A stretch of 44,586 bases of DNA from positions 1 to 44,586 of the IMG/VR virus record IMGVR_UViG_3300028920_000121; one strand, 5' to 3'. Position 1 is the first letter of the stretch. The number at the start of each line of letters is the position of its first letter. The notes below the pieces were generated by a model. It was given only the letters and a program-made list of their open reading frames with translations, made no database searches and was not told where the DNA came from. This DNA comes from a virus. Positions 3,414 through 13,266 of this stretch are shown here, piece by piece. The position numbers and the translations under genes are program-made.

Positions 3414-3955
3414 AGATACTAGTTAATGAAGTACAAAGAATAAGGCGGGATCTTGTCACATCTTTGCCGTATCCCATACAACAACAAATAGAACACGAAC
3501 TCGAAGACTTCGGGTACGATCTTATTATTCATCATGGTCTAAGGCGACATGAGGTTGGATATCTAACTACCTGCATGAATAATGCCAAGAAAAGGTTCAT
3601 AGGTAATTTAGGTAAGAGATTGCAGAGGTATAAGCATATAGCTGAAGAGTTTTATTATGATCCAGGTTCTGATAGTGACGATGGCAATACAACTCTTGAC
3701 AAGTTATATATGTCTACCGCAGGTCTTAGTCAGCACGATAAGGAATTCGCTTATGTGATGGTCGTTATGATAGTTAGAGGGTCCACGGCCCCGATTAAAG
3801 ACACCGCCGCTGAAATCGGCGTTTCCCGAATGACAGTAAATAAATTCTTAAGGAGATGGAAGGCAGCTTATGCCAAAGAAGTTAACAGACAGGTGCCAGA
3901 AGTGCGATCTCTCAACCACTTGCAAAAGCTCTTGCGTTGGAGGGCGGGGAAGTGA
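3383..3955 (+). CDS. HTH DNA-binding protein (190 aa), possible regulator
   Basis: ATG at 3383 overlaps the preceding gene by 31 bases and has only a weak ribosome site. Residues about 130-165 (IKDTAAEIGVSRMTVNKFLR) form a clear helix-turn-helix with a basic end. The N-terminal 120 residues are helical and charged, with an Asp-rich patch (DPGSDSDDGN). It could be a transcription or replication regulator. A sigma region-4-like origin is conceivable but the promoter-core-binding part is not evident. The 3' end overlaps the start of the polymerase gene by 86 bases. Confidence 0.6.
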   Translation: MPLEQTSKDIKILVNEVQRIRRDLVTSLPYPIQQQIEHELEDFGYDLIIHHGLRRHEVGYLTTCMNNAKKRFIGNLGKRLQRYKHIAEEFYYDPGSDSDDGNTTLDKLYMSTAGLSQHDKEFAYVMVVMIVRGSTAPIKDTAAEIGVSRMTVNKFLRRWKAAYAKEVNRQVPEVRSLNHLQKLLRWRAGK

Positions 3956-6161
3956 GCGACCAAAAGTCATCTTCATCGGGCAAGCTCCAGGTAAAGACGA
4001 GGATGAACGAAATACCTGCTTTGTCGGAGATGCAGGCAAACTTCTTATCGAGACACTTTCAAAAAATGGTATTGGAAACTATCGTCTCACAAATACAGTC
4101 AGATGCTTTCCGCCTAATGATAAAAAACCTCTTAAAAGACAGATACAAGCTTGCCTCCCTTATCTCGAAGCAGAGTTAGAAAGGTATCCCTGTGAAATCA
4201 TTGTTCCACTTGGCGGATTGGCATTGGACGTTTTCTTCCCTGGGGCAAAAGTTACCGAAATGGCTGGTCTTGCGCATAAAGTTGATGGCGGTGTCGTATT
4301 CCCTATTCTTCATCCAAATGCAGTATTACACAGACCACAAAACAGGAGAGACTTCGAGTTACAAGTCAAAGCTCTTGCATCTTATCTATCTGGCGATGTC
4401 AAAGCTCGCAGAATTAAACCCAATTACAAAGATTTAACGAATTCTGCGTTTTTTAGGGGTAATAGGGGTGCAAACATCTTGTGGGCGTACGATTTCGAAA
4501 CCACTGGATTAGATCCTAAAAAAGACGAATTGAGGTGTGTATCTTTTGCTGATAGGCCAAATACAGCACAATACACATCTAAGTGTCATGAAATAAACTG
4601 CCCTGAGTTTTGGACCAGGAACAGGTTTATAGCTCATAATTCTAAATTCGAATCCCGTTTCACAAGGAGCAAGTATGGTGTTACCCCTAATATTGTCGGT
4701 GATACATTTATCGCTCATCATCTTCTTTTTGAGGATGAGTCACACCACCTTGACATCCTTGAGAGAATCTTTACGTCACTTGGAGGATCCAAAGATGAAT
4801 CTAACGATTGGCTTCGACGCAACAATAATGCCTGGGATAAAATACCTGCTGATATACTCATGCGCCGCAACTGTTCTGATAGCGATGCCACTTTGCGTAT
4901 TCATAATATTCTCTATCCTGAAATTTGTAAGCAGGGGCTAAAATACCTATATGAGAGTATAAGTGTGCCAGCGGCAACCGTGGTTGGTAAAATGGAAGAC
5001 TGTGGTATGTACGTTAATCCCAATACACTAAAGAAAATCTATACTGAAGAGGAAGCAAAGGCCGCATCCATCAAGAAGCAAATATGTGAAAGGTGGGGGA
5101 TAGACGATATAAACTTCCGATCTCCTAAACAGATGATTAAATTAGTATACGAAACCATGATGGCAGTTGGTTTATCTGGTAAGGTTGGAATGACGAAATC
5201 CGGTCAGCCTAGTACGGACTCTGATGTATTTGAGATAATGATGTCTAAACCGGAAAATGAGCGAATAAAGGACGATTTGCAATTGATACTTGATTGCAGA
5301 TCTGCACTATATAATTGTACGAAGATAGACGAAATATTTAAATGGAGGAGGGACGATGGAACAGTCTCGGCAGACAACAATGTTGCTTATACTCCTACGG
5401 GTCGTCTTACCTCTTCTCGGCCTAACCTTCAAAATTTACCTGTCGATGGTAGAGTAAAATTAGCTTTTGAATCACGTTGGGAAGGGGGTAATATCTGTGA
5501 AGCAGACTATGGACAACTTGAACTCAGACTTATTGGTTCTGAATCTCGGTGTAGGGATCTTATTGAAGCATATAAAGATGGGCGAGATATTCACCAAGAA
5601 ACAGCTGACAAGTTTAACATGGAACGTGTCGATGCTAAACGAGTTAATTTCGCTTGTGCTTACGGAGTCGGGCCTTCGACCCTATCCAGGGAGCTTAAAG
5701 TCGAATTTGAAGACGCAAGATTCTTCCTTGGAGAAAAGAACAAACAATGGTGGCAAATCAGTACGTGGCGGGAAATACAGCATAATAGGGCACGGGAGCA
5801 AGGGTATGTCACAAATAGATTTGGAAGAAGAAAGAGATTACCGAACATACTTAGCAAGGTAGATAAGGAAAGGTTCGCCGCTGAACGGGTGGCAGGTAAT
5901 TTTCCCATCCAATCATTGGGTGCTGATACCCTGATGCTTGCTATGGTTATAATGGACAGATACATTACGGAAATGAAACTCAAATCATTAATAATAAACC
6001 AAGTACACGATTCTATTATTTTGGACGTGTATCCAGGGGAAGAGGAGGTTATAAAGGAACTGATACCAAATGTGATGGTTAAAGAGATTATGGGATTGCA
6101 TGATTGGTATAAGATACCTCTCGTCGTTGATTGTAAAATCGCTAAAACATGGGGAGGCTAA
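3870..6161 (+). CDS. Uracil-DNA glycosylase - family A DNA polymerase fusion
   Basis: 763 residues, ATG after GAAGG. Residues 1-175 match family 4 (Fe-S) uracil-DNA glycosylase: C9/C12, G37-QAPG, TNTVRC79FPP, C95, and H148-PNA. The usual acidic residue in GEAPG is Gln38. From about residue 203 comes a 3'-5' exonuclease domain (YDFETTGLD with D208/E210; AHNSKFE; later SDSDATLR). The polymerase domain has motif A EADYGQLELR (D546), motif B KRVNFACAYG and motif C QVHDS (H713/D714). It is the likely replicase, working with the SSB, helicase and primase. A PurZ-like enzyme lies downstream, so it may be the DpoZ-type polymerase that copies aminoadenine DNA; this is inference. Confidence 0.9.
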   Translation: MPKKLTDRCQKCDLSTTCKSSCVGGRGSERPKVIFIGQAPGKDEDERNTCFVGDAGKLLIETLSKNGIGNYRLTNTVRCFPPNDKKPLKRQIQACLPYLEAELERYPCEIIVPLGGLALDVFFPGAKVTEMAGLAHKVDGGVVFPILHPNAVLHRPQNRRDFELQVKALASYLSGDVKARRIKPNYKDLTNSAFFRGNRGANILWAYDFETTGLDPKKDELRCVSFADRPNTAQYTSKCHEINCPEFWTRNRFIAHNSKFESRFTRSKYGVTPNIVGDTFIAHHLLFEDESHHLDILERIFTSLGGSKDESNDWLRRNNNAWDKIPADILMRRNCSDSDATLRIHNILYPEICKQGLKYLYESISVPAATVVGKMEDCGMYVNPNTLKKIYTEEEAKAASIKKQICERWGIDDINFRSPKQMIKLVYETMMAVGLSGKVGMTKSGQPSTDSDVFEIMMSKPENERIKDDLQLILDCRSALYNCTKIDEIFKWRRDDGTVSADNNVAYTPTGRLTSSRPNLQNLPVDGRVKLAFESRWEGGNICEADYGQLELRLIGSESRCRDLIEAYKDGRDIHQETADKFNMERVDAKRVNFACAYGVGPSTLSRELKVEFEDARFFLGEKNKQWWQISTWREIQHNRAREQGYVTNRFGRRKRLPNILSKVDKERFAAERVAGNFPIQSLGADTLMLAMVIMDRYITEMKLKSLIINQVHDSIILDVYPGEEEVIKELIPNVMVKEIMGLHDWYKIPLVVDCKIAKTWGG

Positions 6162-6434
6162 ATGCCTAAAAAAGTCAGTGAGTCAATGAATATTGACCCT
6201 GCTAACATTCCGACCACGGTAACTATCGATGTCGAATCCTTTCATCTAAGCAAGGGATTGACCCTTTCGCTGGAAGCCTTGGGTGGCAACAAGTTCGAGA
6301 TGGCTAGGTTGGACGCTGGTATCACCATAAAGGGGAAACCTACTGTCCAGGCTGAGAAGGAAGCAAATGCTTTCATGGACGCATACTTGAATCAGCAGTT
6401 GGCTGATCTTCACTCACAATACAAGGGCGGATGA
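6162..6434 (+). CDS. Hypothetical protein in replication operon (90 aa)
   Basis: ATG directly follows the polymerase stop, so the two are almost certainly co-translated (ribosome site GGGGAGG in the end of the polymerase gene). The protein has a beta-like middle (TTVTIDVESFHL, TLSLEALGGNKFEMARLDA) and a helical end. No family recognised. Position between polymerase and SSB suggests a replication accessory role. Confidence 0.65.
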   Translation: MPKKVSESMNIDPANIPTTVTIDVESFHLSKGLTLSLEALGGNKFEMARLDAGITIKGKPTVQAEKEANAFMDAYLNQQLADLHSQYKGG

Positions 6435-6473
6435 AGGAGTCTTGATCCGATCCCGTTTTAACAAGGAGTAAAA

Positions 6474-7445
6474 ATGGCTTTAAATCTGGCACGGTACAAG
6501 GCGAAGCATAAGGAAGCTTCGGAAACAGGTACCGGAGGGAGATCTCTTCGTCTCAAAAACGGCAAGAACTACCTCCGGATTTTCAAATTCCAGCACAAGG
6601 TGGTGGATCGGGATTTCGCAATGAAACTCTATAACCGCGGTGCTGAGGGTGCTCCCGCCGTTGGTGACGTAGTTGAGGAGATTTCCCGTCCATACTTCGC
6701 ACATTTCATGAAGGGCACGGCTCCGCAGAATTGCTACCTCAAAACGGCAAACTGCGATCATTGCCAAGAGGCTAATGAGTTGAAACGTAGCGGCGATGAG
6801 ATGGATAAGCGTTCGGGTCGTCAGCTTGGACGTTCGGAGCGGAATGCAATGAACGTCGTTGACATGAACAACCTGGAAGCTGGCATTCAACGATTTGATG
6901 CCTCCCGCCAACCCTGGGCCGGTATCCTTGCCCAATATATCAGTAAAGCTGAGGATGGGGCGCAGGATGATGATATCTTCGGATGCAACGGGCGTGATTT
7001 TGTCATTGATTATGACAAGAACGCTGACGTTAGCAAGATTTACACCGTTACCATTAGGGATAAAGAGCGGTGTGAAAAGCTGGATCCCAAATTCGAGGAT
7101 AAAGTGGTTGACCTATTTCGCAACCACGAACTCGATCCCGTCGATGCTCCTCCGGTTGGTGAAGAGGCACCTACCCCTAAGCAGGAAACTGCACGCAAAC
7201 CCGCTGACCCGCCTCCGCCACCTAAGGAGGAAGAACCTTCAAAAGATGATCCTAAGTTGAAGGATCTCAAGGATGAGAAAGCCCCTGGCGATCTTACCGG
7301 AAAGCTGGTATCTTTCAAGAATGATGGCAAGGACGTACAGGCTATGTGTGAATCACAGTCTGGTACGGTTCTAAAGGTCCGTGCAGATAACGGTGAGCTT
7401 TGGGAAGTGGATGTCAATGAACTTACTGGCTATCAGCTGAAATAA
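6474..7445 (+). CDS. Single-stranded DNA-binding protein, gp32-like with zinc site
   Basis: ATG follows AAGGAG. The 323-residue protein begins with a basic stretch (LARYKAKHKE) like the cooperativity region of T4 gp32, then an OB-fold-like core. Residues about 77-97 hold H-x9-C-x6-C-x2-C, equivalent in layout to the His-Cys3 zinc site of gp32. From about 220 there is a Pro/Glu/Lys-rich linker (KPADPPPPPKEEEP) and a separate beta-rich C-terminal domain (about residues 275-323) rather than the usual acidic tail. It would coat single strands at the fork and recruit polymerase and helicase. Confidence 0.75.
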   Translation: MALNLARYKAKHKEASETGTGGRSLRLKNGKNYLRIFKFQHKVVDRDFAMKLYNRGAEGAPAVGDVVEEISRPYFAHFMKGTAPQNCYLKTANCDHCQEANELKRSGDEMDKRSGRQLGRSERNAMNVVDMNNLEAGIQRFDASRQPWAGILAQYISKAEDGAQDDDIFGCNGRDFVIDYDKNADVSKIYTVTIRDKERCEKLDPKFEDKVVDLFRNHELDPVDAPPVGEEAPTPKQETARKPADPPPPPKEEEPSKDDPKLKDLKDEKAPGDLTGKLVSFKNDGKDVQAMCESQSGTVLKVRADNGELWEVDVNELTGYQLK

Positions 7446-7454
7446 GGAGACTCC

Positions 7455-8561
7455 ATGGATTATATTAAGAAGGGGAAGATCAACCTGATCATTGATGGTC
7501 AGTGGGGATCTACTGGAAAGGGCAAGCTAGCGGGATATATCGCGAAACGGGCATCGATAGATGTGGCGGTGTGTGATTTCCAGACGAATGCGGGACACAC
7601 GTTCGTTTGCGACGATGGCAAAGAGATTATGGTACAGCAGGTGCCATCGGCACTAATTAATCCAGGTTGCCAGATTTGTATTGCCCCCGCCGCCACAATC
7701 AACGTCGATACCCTGATGAAGGAGATTGAGAAGCATGATCTCTCTAAAAGAATCCACATCCACCCGCATGCCGGTGTCATTGAAGATATCGATACTGCGA
7801 ATGAGGCAAAAGGAGCAATGGTCCAGATTTCTTCGACTCAGAAAGGATGCGGCTCATCTCTATCCAGGAAAATCCGGCGTGAAGCGTCTCTTGCTTGTAA
7901 TTGTGACAGGTTACGGCCTTTTATTGCGGATACTTGCAAGATCGTACAGGATACACTATTTGCTGGAGGAACTGTACTTGGCGAAACTGCCCAAGGATTC
8001 GACTTATCCTTAAATCATGGAATCAAGTACCCATATACAACCTCCAGAGATGTAACGGTTGGCTCCTCTCTTAACAACTTCGGTGTGCCACCAATGTTCC
8101 TTGGTGAAGTGTGGGCCAGTTTAAGGACGTATCCGATTCGGGTTGGTAATGTGTTTGATAAGGATGGTAAGCAGATCGGTTGGTCCGGTCCCAACCATGT
8201 TGATCAGAATGAGATGACTTGGGACGAGATAACCAATTCGTCGGGTTGCCCACACCGCTTAGAGGAAATTACTACCGTGACCAAAAAGGTACGGCGGGTG
8301 TTCAATTTTTCGCTGGCACAGTTGGATCGGTTTATCACCTATAACGCACCGACTAAGTTGTTCATCAACTTTGTCAACTACCTGAATTGGGATGATCACA
8401 ATAAGATGTTCGGTAGTGAATTGTCCTCCATCACTAAGACGTGGGTACATCACGTTGAGGAATGGATGAATGAGTTCTGCTCTGAACGTCGTTTACCTAT
8501 TCCCAAGATTGCCTTATTGGGTACTGGTTCAAAAGATTCGTCAATGGTTGAGTTGGGGTAA
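7455..8561 (+). CDS. purZ: PurZ-like succinoaminodeoxyadenylate synthase (PurA family)
   Basis: 368 residues, ATG after AAGGAG. PurA-family motifs are plain: GQWGSTGKGK (residues 15-24), TNAGHT (44-49, with His48), GETAQGFDLSLNHG, YPYTTSRD, SLRTYPIRVGN, and GTGSKDSS near the end. Cellular adenylosuccinate synthetases read GDEGKG at the first motif, where the Asp is the catalytic base. Here it is Ser19. Replacement of this Asp is a hallmark of phage PurZ, which joins aspartate to dGMP on the way to 2-aminoadenine (Z) nucleotides; host PurB would then release fumarate. The protein is shorter than E. coli PurA, as for PurZ. Neighbours (kinase-pyrophosphatase fusion, family A polymerase) fit a Z-DNA pathway. 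A divergent PurA acting on IMP is the alternative. Confidence 0.85.
   Translation: MDYIKKGKINLIIDGQWGSTGKGKLAGYIAKRASIDVAVCDFQTNAGHTFVCDDGKEIMVQQVPSALINPGCQICIAPAATINVDTLMKEIEKHDLSKRIHIHPHAGVIEDIDTANEAKGAMVQISSTQKGCGSSLSRKIRREASLACNCDRLRPFIADTCKIVQDTLFAGGTVLGETAQGFDLSLNHGIKYPYTTSRDVTVGSSLNNFGVPPMFLGEVWASLRTYPIRVGNVFDKDGKQIGWSGPNHVDQNEMTWDEITNSSGCPHRLEEITTVTKKVRRVFNFSLAQLDRFITYNAPTKLFINFVNYLNWDDHNKMFGSELSSITKTWVHHVEEWMNEFCSERRLPIPKIALLGTGSKDSSMVELG
8546..8559 (+). repeat. 14-nt direct repeat, copy 1 (end of purZ)
   Basis: GGTTGAGTTGGGGT at the end of purZ recurs exactly at 8718-8731. In purZ it encodes the last residues Val-Glu-Leu-Gly before the TAA. In the second copy the same frame would end with TGA. 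See the finding on the intervening segment. Confidence 0.85.
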
Positions 8562-8853
8562 GAAAGGCGGAAATAGCGTTACAAGTAGCGTATAGGTTGA
8601 TCACCAGAGTACGCGGCTTTCCGTGGGCCTTATCACTGTTGTTTTAGGGGATCCGGCCAATTCCCTTCGATAGTGTGACCGCCAGACTCTTGTAACGCAC
8701 CCCACATTTTTAAATTTGGTTGAGTTGGGGTGATGTTGGTTGGAAGGTGTGCAAGTACCGTAAGTCTGTAAAACGCAGGGAAACGCCTTAAATGGGGGAG
8801 GGATACCTGACGATCCTGGCCTTTCAACCGACTTCTAACACAGCGGAGGTAAA
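8562..8853 (+). other. 292-bp gap with a long-range inverted repeat; possible structured RNA
   Basis: No convincing gene is seen. GCGTTACAAG (8576-8585) is the exact reverse complement of CTTGTAACGC (8689-8698), enclosing about 100 bases that contain smaller pairings (AGGGGA with TTCCCT near 8646-8666). The right part has a possible 21-codon reading frame starting at an ATG near 8792 whose TGA overlaps the start of the kinase gene, but support is weak. The segment could be an untranslated structured RNA, a regulatory leader for the kinase gene, or a small inserted element. Confidence 0.45.
8718..8731 (+). repeat. 14-nt direct repeat, copy 2
   Basis: Exact second copy of GGTTGAGTTGGGGT, 172 bases after the first, followed by TGA in the same relative frame. 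The two copies bracket the inverted repeat 8576-8585/8689-8698. Confidence 0.85.
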
Positions 8854-9825
8854 ATGAAATCAGTTATGTTCGTTACAGGTCGGCAGGGGTGTGGTAAAAC
8901 AACCTTGTGCCGATCTAAGAAGTACCATGTCTTGCCTGGGCAGGTACTCCGTAAGAAATTCGGAGATAAGTTCTTTACTTCCTGCATAAATCCAGCCGCT
9001 CCGCGTGAAACGGAGAAAGAGGTAAGGGAGATTATCACTGACGCAATACAAAAGACCCCAGAAGGTGAAGTTTTGTGGGTTGATGGTTTCCCACGTAATA
9101 CCACTCAGTCTATGTGGATACATGGATTAATAGTTAATGGCATCCATCCGCATATCGTATTTTTAACCTGCTTCGATTCAGTAAGGCGTGAACGCGGTAG
9201 GGTAAGGGATCTGAGTAAACCCGATGCGCAGGAACTATTTGATAAACGGGAGCAAACAGAAACTCAGCGTCTTTACGACGTGGTGATGGAGGTTCATCAC
9301 TATGGACTTACATGGTCAATTCTGGATAATACACCGGAAAATAAAAACCTTGTTGAGCACCCTGATCCTTTTAGTGGGGTTCATCTTGGCACTGATCTTA
9401 GGACCATCTTTAATAACCACATTGACCTCCTTAAAATAGGTGGTACATATGAAGCTATGGCTGATGCAGTAACTGATCCAGGTATGGAAGCGATGGATGA
9501 AACGATACCTGGGTCACCTAAAGCCACTTTCATCCGTAATCTTATTAATCATATCAAAATGGAGTGTAATGAACTTCTTGCCAAATTACCGGATAAATGT
9601 TGGCCAATTCCGGATTTGGCTGTTAAAGATGGCCCATTACGGGTAGAGCTTGTAGACGCATTTCACTTTATGTTATCTGCGGCTATGGTTCTTGGTATGG
9701 ATGCTGATTTCTTCGCTAAGTTATATGAAGAGAAACGCAAGGTAAACGTTAAACGTCAGACAGAGGGTTACGTAAAAACCCGACAAGGAGAGGACGATAC
9801 CAAACTTGGATATCGGAACGTATAA
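8854..9825 (+). CDS. Fused nucleoside monophosphate kinase - all-alpha NTP pyrophosphatase (MazZ candidate)
   Basis: 323 residues, ATG after GCGGAGG. Residues 1-about 185 are an adenylate-kinase-like P-loop domain: Walker A G9RQGCGKT, VDGFPRN (D77-R81) in the NMP-binding region, and an Arg-rich lid-like segment (RRERGRVRD). Residues about 211-310 are an all-alpha NTP pyrophosphatase of the dimeric dUTPase/MazG kind: E237-xx-E240, E265-xx-D268 followed by FHF, then K-xx-VN-xx-RQ-xx-GY. The likely reactions are dNTP to dNMP plus PPi, and phosphorylation of a dNMP. Beside purZ the natural reading is dGTP to dGMP (MazZ-like) and dZMP to dZDP. dUTP hydrolysis plus another kinase substrate is the alternative. 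Confidence 0.8.
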   Translation: MKSVMFVTGRQGCGKTTLCRSKKYHVLPGQVLRKKFGDKFFTSCINPAAPRETEKEVREIITDAIQKTPEGEVLWVDGFPRNTTQSMWIHGLIVNGIHPHIVFLTCFDSVRRERGRVRDLSKPDAQELFDKREQTETQRLYDVVMEVHHYGLTWSILDNTPENKNLVEHPDPFSGVHLGTDLRTIFNNHIDLLKIGGTYEAMADAVTDPGMEAMDETIPGSPKATFIRNLINHIKMECNELLAKLPDKCWPIPDLAVKDGPLRVELVDAFHFMLSAAMVLGMDADFFAKLYEEKRKVNVKRQTEGYVKTRQGEDDTKLGYRNV

Positions 9826-11077
9826 GTTTGGGAGTGACTTTCAGACAGCGATACTTAATTGTATCATAAAAGACCGTAAATTTCTTGAGCAGTACCGCGA
9901 TTCAGTAAGTCCGGAGTATTTCGGGGACGAATGTTATCGCCACGTTTGCTCTGTAATTTTGAGGTTGTTTGATAAATTCAATGTCACTCCATCAAAAGAG
10001 ACAATTGTTGAGGAGATAAAATCTCAGGGGGGAGGAGAAGAAGTTGTTGATACAATTGATTACATTACATCTAAGCAGGTTCCTGACTCGAAGATTATTG
10101 AAAGTAAAGCAAGAACTTTCGCCAGAACTAAAGCGGTTAAGAACGCATTACTCGCTATTCAAAGCCAAATCAATGCGGACCAGACAGAGGATACCTTTAA
10201 GAACGTTGAGAGTCAATTTGCGAAGGCTATCAATGTCGGTACAGGGTACAGCACTGGCTATTCTTATACGGATAATGTGGTTGATAGGTTCCAAAACTAC
10301 GAGGAGAGAGATCCTGCAATACCAACCGGATTTAGGTCGATCGATAACAGGGTCGAAGGGGGACTACATTACAAAGAGTTAGGCATGATAATCGGAATGC
10401 CTGGGGGAGGTAAAACAACTGCCCTTATACACATGGGTAAGAACGCTCTAATGAACGGATTTAATGTCATACACTATAGCCTGGAGATGCGTGAACTTTT
10501 AGTTGCAAGGCGATATGATATGTCTATATCAGAAATGACAAAAGACGAATTGTTACAACTGAAACGTACAGCGGCAAAGCGGATATTTGATAAAGTGAAG
10601 GGTAAGTTACTTATACAAGAATACCCTGCTTGTTCAGCCACTACCGCTACCATAAGGAATCATATATCATTAAAAATACGGGAAGGATTTGTCCCCCATC
10701 TTATCATTGTAGATTACGACGATTTGGTACTGCCGACCCGACAACTTGATGAGTCCCGCACGAATGTGAAACGCCTATATCGTGAGTTGGATGGCATAAC
10801 TAAGGAATTCTCTGTTGCTTTATGGACTGCCAGCCAAACAAATAAGAAGATCTTTGAGATGAGGGATGGAGAAGTAATTGATATGCAACATGCAACTGAA
10901 TCCCTGGAAGCGAAAGGTGGTACGCCCCATTTAATATTATCCATGAATCAGACCTTTAAGGAATATAGGGATGGATTTCTGCGTATGCATATGGTTAAGA
11001 ATCGGGAAGGTGAGCAACAGTTAACAGTAAATTGTGATATACAGCGAAATAAAATGTTAATGAGGGAGATAATTTGA
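9806..11077 (+). CDS. DnaB-like replicative helicase
   Basis: TTG start at 9806 lies inside the end of the kinase gene, with AGGAGAGG about 12 bases upstream; no ATG fits better. The 423-residue protein has a helical N-terminal domain (about 1-150), then a RecA-like motor: Walker A GMPGGGKT (near residue 195), a Walker B-like strand LIIVDYDDLV, and WTASQTNKK as a sensor motif, matching the DnaB/SF4 family. It would unwind the fork and partner with the separate TOPRIM primase at 13256-14101, unlike the fused primase-helicase of T7. Confidence 0.85.
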   Translation: MDIGTYKFGSDFQTAILNCIIKDRKFLEQYRDSVSPEYFGDECYRHVCSVILRLFDKFNVTPSKETIVEEIKSQGGGEEVVDTIDYITSKQVPDSKIIESKARTFARTKAVKNALLAIQSQINADQTEDTFKNVESQFAKAINVGTGYSTGYSYTDNVVDRFQNYEERDPAIPTGFRSIDNRVEGGLHYKELGMIIGMPGGGKTTALIHMGKNALMNGFNVIHYSLEMRELLVARRYDMSISEMTKDELLQLKRTAAKRIFDKVKGKLLIQEYPACSATTATIRNHISLKIREGFVPHLIIVDYDDLVLPTRQLDESRTNVKRLYRELDGITKEFSVALWTASQTNKKIFEMRDGEVIDMQHATESLEAKGGTPHLILSMNQTFKEYRDGFLRMHMVKNREGEQQLTVNCDIQRNKMLMREII

Positions 11078-11099
11078 ATGCTATTTAAAAGGAGGACTA

Positions 11100-11327
11100 A
11101 TGCCAATAACTTATGGTGCTTTGCCGCCTGTTTCCTCAAGGATTAGTGAAGCGGCGGATTACGTTCGAAAACACATCCACGATTTCAAATCACGTGGCAT
11201 AAAGATCAACTACGGGACTCTTCTTGGTAACGTTGCTAACAGTTTTGAAATTTCAACACAAGATCTTAGGAAGGAGTTGGGATGGAACAAAAAACCTGCA
11301 AGGCAGATGCGCCTAAAACTACGATAA
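11100..11327 (+). CDS. Small hypothetical protein, possible DNA binder (75 aa)
   Basis: ATG has a near-perfect AAAGGAGG site. The product is helical and basic (AADYVRKHIHDFKSRG, then ISTQDLRKELGW and a basic C-terminal KKPARQMRLKLR). The middle could be a helix-turn-helix. It overlaps the next gene by 46 bases. No family recognised. Confidence 0.65.
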   Translation: MPITYGALPPVSSRISEAADYVRKHIHDFKSRGIKINYGTLLGNVANSFEISTQDLRKELGWNKKPARQMRLKLR

Positions 11328-12879: not shown

Positions 12880-13073
12880 TGAAAAAAATTCATAAAGTAT
12901 TAACCATAAAAAATCTTGAAATTATTTTCAGTTTTAGAAGTAAGAACAATTTTTGGGGTAGATTTGGTGGTGGTTGGAACTGGAAATTTGGTTTTCAATC
13001 CGGTGGTTCAAGCGTAATTTTCTCATTTTTAGTATTTGATTTATGGATAAGGAAAAAGCGGATTAATGGATGA
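12879..13073 (+). CDS. Small aromatic/basic hypothetical protein (64 aa)
   Basis: ATG overlaps the previous TAA by one base. The product is rich in Phe, Trp, Lys and Gly (FWGRFGGGWNWKFGF), with a hydrophobic stretch VIFSFLVFDLW near the end followed by a basic KKRING, which could contact membrane. It overlaps the next start by eight bases. No family recognised; coding status rests on the tight overlaps. Confidence 0.5.
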   Translation: MKKIHKVLTIKNLEIIFSFRSKNNFWGRFGGGWNWKFGFQSGGSSVIFSFLVFDLWIRKKRING

Positions 13074-13266
13074 ATTAAAACCATGTCCATTTTGCGGGTC
13101 TTCCCCGTGGCTGCACTCATACAAGGGTATTTTTGTCGGTGAGATACCGTACAGAGGTGATATTGGTTATCGGGTTGAATGTGAGGGGGAGTGCCACGCA
13201 ATGACCTGCTACTGGCACTCAAAAGATGAAGCTATTAAGGCATGGAACAAAAGGTATGACACTTAA
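13066..13266 (+). CDS. Lar-like restriction alleviation protein (zinc ribbon)
   Basis: 66 residues. The opening LKPCPFCGS, the later Cys pair around CEGECHAMTCYW, and the end EAIKAWNKR are the signature of the Lar family, small zinc proteins of phages and prophages. Rac prophage Lar eases host type I restriction. Here such a role is by family analogy only. Many family members have no tested function. Confidence 0.75.
   Translation: MDELKPCPFCGSSPWLHSYKGIFVGEIPYRGDIGYRVECEGECHAMTCYWHSKDEAIKAWNKRYDT

What the first reader, a model, noticed from the sequence alone, without database searches (positions are those of the whole stretch)
7455..8561. PurZ-type active site: likely 2-aminoadenine (Z) DNA phage
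The PurA-family enzyme has GSTGKG where cellular enzymes have GDEGKG, so the catalytic Asp is Ser19, as known for phage PurZ. Together with a nucleotide pyrophosphatase domain and a family A polymerase in the same operon, this predicts that adenine is replaced by 2-aminoadenine in the virion DNA, which would block many restriction enzymes and CRISPR nucleases.
Basis: partly seen in the sequence, partly recalled or inferred. Interest (0 to 1): 0.92.

Follow-up and report, generated by a model that had tools for sequence, protein, structure and literature searches.

The report
Phage Z-DNA cassette with kinase fusion
This virus carries a genuine PurZ gene, the enzyme phages use to replace adenine in their DNA with 2-aminoadenine, and it belongs to a group of uncultured phages that keep their own kinase gene beside purZ, which could supply a step that published work assigns to the host.

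Summary
The 368-aa protein at 7455-8561 is a PurZ: Ser19 replaces PurA's catalytic Asp, the other two PurZ-only substrate contacts (Thr273, Asn308) are present, and it lies inside the PurZ clade. A 2-aminoadenine (Z) DNA phage is likely, though not measured.

The family A polymerase lacks the Tyr-to-Phe change shared by both known Z-selective DpoZ clades. No DatZ or MazZ was found. The "pyrophosphatase" is a dimeric-dUTPase-type domain fused to an adenylate-kinase-type kinase.

The new part is context. In the window's PurZ clade (21 rows, bootstrap 95), 20 rows have this kinase immediately downstream of purZ and none has DatZ. The sister clade (phiVC8, S-2L, SH-Ab 15497) has DatZ and no such kinase. 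The kinase is fused to two unrelated hydrolases in different phages, and is absent from 67 purZ-less loci with related polymerases. Published work says phage enzymes for dSMP to dZMP to dZTP had not been found. I propose a phage dZMP kinase in a third type of Z-DNA cassette: a new variant of a known kind. All substrates remain inferred.

The parts
7455..8561 (+). purZ: 2-amino-adenylosuccinate (dSMP) synthetase, Ser19 at the PurA catalytic Asp position
   Evidence: families, PurZ-only residues S19/T273/N308, tree position inside PurZ
8854..9348 (+). N-terminal half of the fusion gene 8854-9825: adenylate-kinase-type P-loop NMP kinase (proposed dZMP kinase)
   Evidence: P-loop GRQGCGKT and DGFPRNTTQ; profile and fold match short AMP/UMP-CMP kinases
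9394..9825 (+). C-terminal half of the same gene: dimeric-dUTPase-type (all-alpha) dNTP hydrolase, base specificity unknown
   Evidence: PF08761 in 6 of 6 fused homologues; PDB dimeric dUTPases 2cje, 2yay, 1w2y; ExxE, ExxD, His-Phe and K-N-R motifs kept
3870..6161 (+). DNA polymerase: UDG-type domain (about 3945-4355), 3'-5' exonuclease, family A polymerase domain (about 5025-6155); helix O RVDAKRVNFACAYG with canonical Phe and Tyr
6474..7445 (+). Conserved 323-aa gene directly upstream of purZ in close relatives; no family match; possibly ssDNA-binding, judged by position only
   Evidence: Homologues between polymerase and purZ in L022, L023, L024, L125, L126, L128; no Pfam or PHROG match
9806..11077 (+). 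DnaB-like replicative helicase, next gene after the fusion and conserved in the clade
   Evidence: PHROG 19 1.7e-66; homologues downstream of purZ across the clade

Best explanation
The window is a tailed phage that makes 2-aminoadenine (Z) DNA with a third type of Z cassette. PurZ (7455-8561) condenses dGMP with aspartate, probably using ATP or dATP, to dSMP. A host PurB-type lyase releases dZMP. The kinase half of the 8854-9825 fusion phosphorylates dZMP to dZDP, and a host NDP kinase gives dZTP for the phage family A polymerase. The dimeric-dUTPase-like half turns a dNTP into its dNMP, most usefully dGTP to dGMP to feed PurZ and/or dATP to dAMP to remove competition. Shown: PurZ residues, clade and fold; kinase and hydrolase families; the conserved purZ-kinase linkage. 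Inferred: every substrate, and Z in virion DNA. My odds for each step: PurZ activity 0.93; some Z in virion DNA 0.85; near-complete replacement 0.65; kinase acts on dZMP 0.6; hydrolase acts on purine dNTPs 0.45.
For: All three PurZ-only substrate contacts named for S-2L PurZ (PMC8342488) are present: S19, T273, N308, with the PurA guanine motif replaced by N-F-x-N. Tree: PurA outside at 100/100; window in a 21-row clade (95/93) sister to the phiVC8/S-2L/SH-Ab clade. The kinase is the next gene after purZ in 20 of 21 rows of that clade. It is absent from 67 purZ-less loci with related polymerases (976 kb) and present in 8 of 9 purZ-positive ones. A kinase-seeded search returned 10 loci, 8 beside purZ. 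The kinase is fused to a dimeric-dUTPase domain in the window and relatives and to an unrelated trimeric-dUTPase domain in L033. All 17 kinases examined have Gln after DGFPR, as adenylate kinases do, where UMP/CMP kinase has Asn. The literature states that phage enzymes for dSMP to dZMP to dZTP were not found (PMC8342488).
Against: No substrate was tested and there is no virion DNA. The polymerase lacks the DpoZ mark, and no DatZ or MazZ was found, so exclusion of adenine is unexplained unless the fused hydrolase does it. The His-Phe pair kept in the hydrolase has been tied to uracil specificity (PMC5608427), which favours a plain dUTPase. The kinase could be a general dNMP kinase; two kinase relatives lie in fetched regions without purZ (L213, L214). 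The kinase/DatZ split follows clades, so its statistical value is limited.
Confidence: 0.6

Rival explanations
1. PurZ is functional but the phage makes mixed A/Z DNA, because it has neither DatZ nor a Z-selective polymerase; partial substitution is enough to blunt restriction.
For: No DatZ found and canonical helix O in the polymerase. Expressing the S-2L datZ-mazZ-purZ cluster in E. coli gave only partial replacement, and less when the cluster was incomplete (PMC8342488).
Against: The fused hydrolase may clear dATP, and S-2L PurZ itself consumes dATP (PMC8342488). The DpoZ paper concludes that no single residue decides Z selectivity (PMC8599892).
Confidence: 0.22
2. PurZ makes dZMP, but the kinase-hydrolase fusion is an ordinary pyrimidine-pool enzyme: a dUTPase joined to a dNMP kinase that keeps uracil out of DNA, working with the UDG domain on the polymerase.
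For: The hydrolase family is dimeric dUTPase with the His-Phe pair kept; trimeric dUTPases fill the same slot in relatives; a UDG domain is fused to the polymerase.
Against: The kinase keeps the adenylate-kinase Gln, not the UMP/CMP-kinase Asn. It tracks purZ and not the related UDG-polymerase phages. dUTPase homologues in PurZ0 phages hydrolyse dATP and dGTP (PMC12884076). In L025 the slot holds DUF5664, a dATP/dGTP hydrolase family, plus a dUTPase.
Confidence: 0.3
3. The gene is an ordinary PurA making AMP for the host or phage, and the Ser is a neutral or inactivating change.
For: PurA fold; fold ranking alone does not separate PurZ from short archaeal PurA.
Against: Ser19 and the other PurZ-only residues are invariant across the clade; 100/100 separation from PurA; the purZ gene is kept intact beside a conserved replication module.
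Confidence: 0.03

Closest known systems
PurZ of phiVC8, S-2L and SH-Ab 15497 with the datZ-mazZ-purZ Z-cluster
   Same: PurZ residues, size, fold and clade; purZ lies in the replication module near a family A polymerase (phiVC8, SH-Ab)
   Different: No DatZ or MazZ found; polymerase lacks the DpoZ Phe; purZ is followed by a kinase-hydrolase fusion
PurZ0 phages (Wayne, Ghobes) with DutZ, DmtZ and DUF5664
   Same: A dUTPase-class enzyme accompanies the synthetase; two-domain fusions occur
   Different: Different PurZ subclade; the window hydrolase is the all-alpha dimeric type, not trimeric DutZ; the partner domain is a kinase, not DmtZ (PMC12884076)
Bacillus phage vB_BpsS-140
   Same: Nearest GenBank PurZ (37%), also Ser-type; carries an adenylate kinase gene next to a dUTPase gene
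   Different: The kinase and dUTPase are separate genes about 9 kb from purZ, the dUTPase is trimeric, and it falls outside the window's clade
Dimeric all-alpha dUTPases and short adenylate/UMP-CMP kinases
   Same: Domain families and catalytic motifs
   Different: I found no published fusion of the two domains
UDG-family A polymerases of SPO1-like and other phages
   Same: Same UDG-exonuclease-polymerase layout and canonical helix O
   Different: Those loci lack purZ and the kinase

Membership tests
PurZ (2-aminoadenylosuccinate synthetase) | Ser in place of the PurA catalytic Asp in GDEGKG | tested here: met
   Ser19, GSTGKG; invariant in the 23 viral rows
PurZ (2-aminoadenylosuccinate synthetase) | Other PurZ-only substrate contacts (S-2L T273 and Q308, N297 in phiVC8) | tested here: met
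   T273 and N308 (residue list from PMC8342488)
PurZ (2-aminoadenylosuccinate synthetase) | Groups with PurZ and not PurA in a tree | tested here: met
   100/100 against PurA; 99/95 PurZ group; 95/93 window clade
PurZ (2-aminoadenylosuccinate synthetase) | Makes dSMP from dGMP and Asp | not testable with these tools
   Needs purified enzyme
PurZ0 subgroup | Falls with Wayne/Gordonia PurZ0 | tested here: not met
   PurZ0 rows form a separate 100/100 clade
Z-cluster of S-2L type | DatZ (HD dATP triphosphohydrolase) and MazZ/DUF550 near purZ | tested here: not met
   No phmmer hit to DatZ, MazZ, MazZ-2 or DUF5664-DUF550 in the window; record may be incomplete
DpoZ Z-selective polymerase | Phe at the steric gate in helix O, the one mark shared by both DpoZ clades | tested here: not met
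   Tyr at position 766 (E. coli numbering) (PMC8599892)
DpoZ Z-selective polymerase | Groups with DpoZ-1 or DpoZ-2 | tested here: not met
   Lies with purZ-less phage polymerases, 100/99
Adenylate-kinase-type NMP kinase | P-loop, DGFPR signature, short kinase fold | tested here: met
Adenylate-kinase-type NMP kinase | Phosphorylates dZMP | not testable with these tools
   Needs enzyme assay
Dimeric dUTPase (dUTPase_2) | ExxE and ExxD metal motifs, His-Phe pair, K-N-R motif | tested here: met
   Invariant in the six fused homologues
Dimeric dUTPase (dUTPase_2) | Base-reading motif I of dUTP/dCTP enzymes | tested here: inconclusive
   N-terminal helix too diverged to match with confidence
Dimeric dUTPase (dUTPase_2) | Specific for dUTP | not testable with these tools
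   Needs enzyme assay

The most novel reading that the evidence does not exclude
The fusion is a bifunctional enzyme acting at both ends of the PurZ pathway: it turns dGTP (and/or dATP) into the monophosphate and phosphorylates the resulting dZMP. It would contain the first phage-encoded dZMP kinase, in a third independently assembled Z-DNA cassette that works without DatZ and without a DpoZ-signature polymerase.
Probability: 0.35. Interest if true: 0.8.

Novelty: new variant of a known kind. Interest (0 to 1): 0.62.

Why it matters
Z-DNA phages replace adenine throughout their genomes. Two enzyme sets are described: DatZ/MazZ with DpoZ-2, and DutZ/DmtZ with DpoZ-1. Published work assigns the steps from dSMP to dZTP to host enzymes. 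A clade of uncultured phages with a kinase tied to purZ, fused to two unrelated hydrolases and without DatZ, offers a candidate phage gene for one of those steps. It also makes testable whether a Z-selective polymerase is needed at all, and supplies new enzymes for making Z-containing DNA in the laboratory.

Tried and rejected
(1) PurZ as an ordinary PurA: rejected by residues and tree. (2) Polymerase as DpoZ: helix O and tree do not support it. (3) A clade-wide exonuclease motif II Asp-to-Glu change as a new Z-polymerase mark: fixed in the purZ-linked polymerases of the clade but also present in 14 purZ-less loci, so not specific (the search pattern itself favoured Glu). (4) Single-protein searches for relatives found none; alignment-based ones did. 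(5) A phage PurB: no hit to E. coli adenylosuccinate lyase in the ORF sets searched. (6) DNA-level relatives in GenBank phages: none. (7) tRNA and Rfam scans of the window: empty. (8) Deciding the hydrolase's base from motif I: left open. (9) Fold ranking of PurZ against PurA does not separate them, so I rely on sequence. (10) The AlphaFold model of the fusion is good only in its kinase half. (11) No exact terminal repeat, so completeness is unknown.

Full report
OBSERVATION. The ORF at 7455-8561 (+, 368 aa) is intact, with AAGGAG five bases upstream of the ATG. It matches Pfam adenylosuccinate synthetase (1.5e-33) and PHROG 1211 (4e-60). Its best solved-structure matches are phage PurZ (6fm1 7e-45; 7odx 1.5e-40), ahead of every PurA. 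Residues 18-23 are GSTGKG, against GDEGKG in E. coli PurA.

IS IT PurZ? The S-2L PurZ paper lists the substrate contacts and names S23, T273 and Q308 (N297 in phiVC8) among the PurZ-only residues that touch substrates (PMC8342488). Through the alignment they map to Ser19, Thr273 and Asn308 in the window. The rest of the dGMP base pocket (G18, N45, A46, T128, Q180, V230) and R142 and R229 are kept. PurA's T-K-x-D guanine motif is N-F-x-N, as in the ATP-using PurZ enzymes. The protein models well (pLDDT 91), but fold ranking alone does not separate PurZ from short archaeal PurA. In a maximum-likelihood tree of 62 rows (bootstrap/SH-aLRT), PurA is outside at 100/100, PurZ0 lies outside a 99/95 PurZ group, and the window is in a 21-row clade (95/93) sister to the clade with phiVC8, S-2L and SH-Ab 15497 (that clade 92/88). 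An 83-row version agrees. Long-branch rows were left out of the 62-row tree.

THE WINDOW AND ITS RELATIVES. The window is an entire IMG/VR virus record of 44,586 bases, classed linear. No GenBank phage is similar at DNA level over 3800-11100, and the nearest PurZ is that of Bacillus phage vB_BpsS-140 at 37%. An alignment-based scan of viral contigs found 254 purZ-bearing stretches, the best 50% identical. I called ORFs in the best 80 loci, in named phages and in further loci, and searched them with proteins of the window, S-2L, phiVC8, SH-Ab 15497, Wayne and BpsS-140.

TWO CASSETTES. One set of loci has DpoZ-2, DatZ and usually MazZ/DUF550 around purZ, as published. The window's set has a different polymerase, often with a UDG domain, then purZ, then a P-loop NMP kinase as the next gene, usually a dNTP hydrolase, then a DnaB-like helicase. 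The kinase is the next gene downstream in 20 of 21 rows of the window's clade, often overlapping the purZ stop. Among 58 dereplicated loci with at least 2.5 kb downstream, kinase and DatZ never occur together (0 both, 17 kinase only, 33 DatZ only, 8 neither). The Fisher value (5e-9) overstates this, because the two states sort by clade. A control speaks more directly: among 76 loci fetched through the polymerase, none of 67 without purZ carries this kinase (976 kb), while 8 of 9 with purZ do. A search seeded by the kinase returned ten loci, eight beside purZ.

THE FUSION. In the window (8854-9825) and in L022, L023, L024, L125/L126 and L128 the kinase is fused to an all-alpha hydrolase domain of the dimeric dUTPase family (PF08761 in 6 of 6 scanned; PDB 2cje, 2yay, 1w2y). 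In L033 a related kinase is fused to an unrelated trimeric dUTPase domain, and in many other clade members a trimeric dUTPase is the next gene. L025, in the window's own six-row subclade, lacks the kinase and has DUF5664 plus a trimeric dUTPase. One kinase fused to two unrelated hydrolases suggests that kinase and hydrolase act in one pathway. BpsS-140, outside the clade, also has an adenylate kinase gene next to a dUTPase gene. Because BpsS-140, L027 and L033 branch below both large clades, the kinase may be older than the DatZ set; this was not tested.

WHAT THE PARTS PROBABLY DO. The kinase matches the short adenylate/UMP-CMP kinases by profile and fold. All 17 members examined keep Gln after DGFPR, where UMP/CMP kinase has Asn. 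In adenylate kinases that Gln contacts the adenine of AMP (my own knowledge, not tested here), so a 6-aminopurine substrate, dZMP or (d)AMP, is most likely; making dADP would work against a Z phage. The hydrolase keeps ExxE, ExxD, the His-Phe pair and the K-N-R motif. A review assigns metal binding to motifs II and IV, deoxyribose selection to motif IV and base coordination to motif I (PMC12524310). A structural paper ties the motif IV His to uracil specificity (PMC5608427). Its base preference is therefore open. The precedent for a changed base is DutZ of PurZ0 phages, a dUTPase homologue shown to hydrolyse dATP and dGTP (PMC12884076).

THE POLYMERASE. Both known DpoZ clades share one mark, Phe in place of the steric-gate Tyr (PMC8599892). 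The window reads RVDAKRVNFACAYG, with canonical Phe762 and Tyr766 (E. coli numbering). Tyr is found in 13 of the 14 aligned window-type polymerases that accompany purZ; L025 has Asn, and a further locus, L144, appears to have Phe. The window enzyme groups with purZ-less phage polymerases (100/99). So it is not a DpoZ by the tests available. It may still prefer dZTP, or adenine may be kept out through the nucleotide pool, as reported for S-2L, whose PrimPol does not discriminate (PMC8342488).

COMPARISON WITH WHAT IS KNOWN. The system works like the published Z systems, and its PurZ is a member of that family. The cassette is not the DatZ/MazZ Z-cluster (tested, not met) and its PurZ is not PurZ0. 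The 2021 paper states that enzymes for dSMP to dZMP to dZTP had not been found on phage genomes (PMC8342488), and the 2026 survey does not contain the word kinase (PMC12884076). Searches of the open-access library found no report of a phage dZMP kinase; subscription papers and preprints could not be searched.

VERDICT. The finding is real and its headline is probably right. Its best novelty is not PurZ itself, a known family, but a third Z-DNA cassette with a candidate phage dZMP kinase. No substrate was tested and no virion DNA was available, so the mechanism rests on family, residue and neighbourhood evidence.

Noticed in passing
L113-L121, L123 (for example L114:9455-11053 +): Bacterial contigs (Rhizobiaceae, Pleomorphomonas, Acidobacteria, Gemmatimonadota, an actinobacterium) encode a roughly 532-aa protein: an N-terminal P-loop kinase domain fused to a Ser-type PurA/PurZ-like synthetase (GGQWGSEGKG). 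In most loci it is followed directly by a DUF7002 gene, and in the Rhizobiales loci there is a divergent HD (YfbR-like) gene. The kinase part weakly matches an anti-phage dCTP deaminase model (1e-5). It looks like a nucleotide-modifying operon, possibly defensive.
   Followed up: partly
L107, L110, L111, L112: Contigs of gut-type Firmicutes and Prevotella carry short Ser-type PurZ-like genes; L107, L110 and L111 form a separate branch near PurZ0 (94/80).
   Followed up: no
L124:9947-11113: A halobacterial contig carries a Ser-type PurZ-like gene (VGGQAGSEGKG); four archaeal Ser/Gly types are mentioned in PMC12884076.
   Followed up: no
window 13066-13266: Small gene matching the restriction alleviation protein Lar (PF14354, 1.8e-12), odd in a phage whose DNA may already resist restriction.
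   Followed up: no
window 3945-4355: UDG-type domain on the polymerase: the window copy keeps four Cys that could hold an Fe-S cluster, but the motif usually written GEAPG is GQAPG; the domain is degenerate in L023, L024 and L126.
   Followed up: no
polymerases of the window's clade: Exonuclease motif II has Glu instead of the usual Asp in the purZ-linked polymerases of the clade; the same change occurs in a number of purZ-less UDG-polymerases.
   Followed up: yes
L028, L029, L030, L035, L045, L054, L067: A distant part of the clade has Leu at the E. coli Phe762 position of helix O, like L455 of phiVC8 DpoZ, while keeping the Tyr gate.
   Followed up: no
L039, L040, L055, L097: purZ plus DatZ loci without a detected MazZ; L061 has both DatZ and a trimeric dUTPase.
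   Followed up: no
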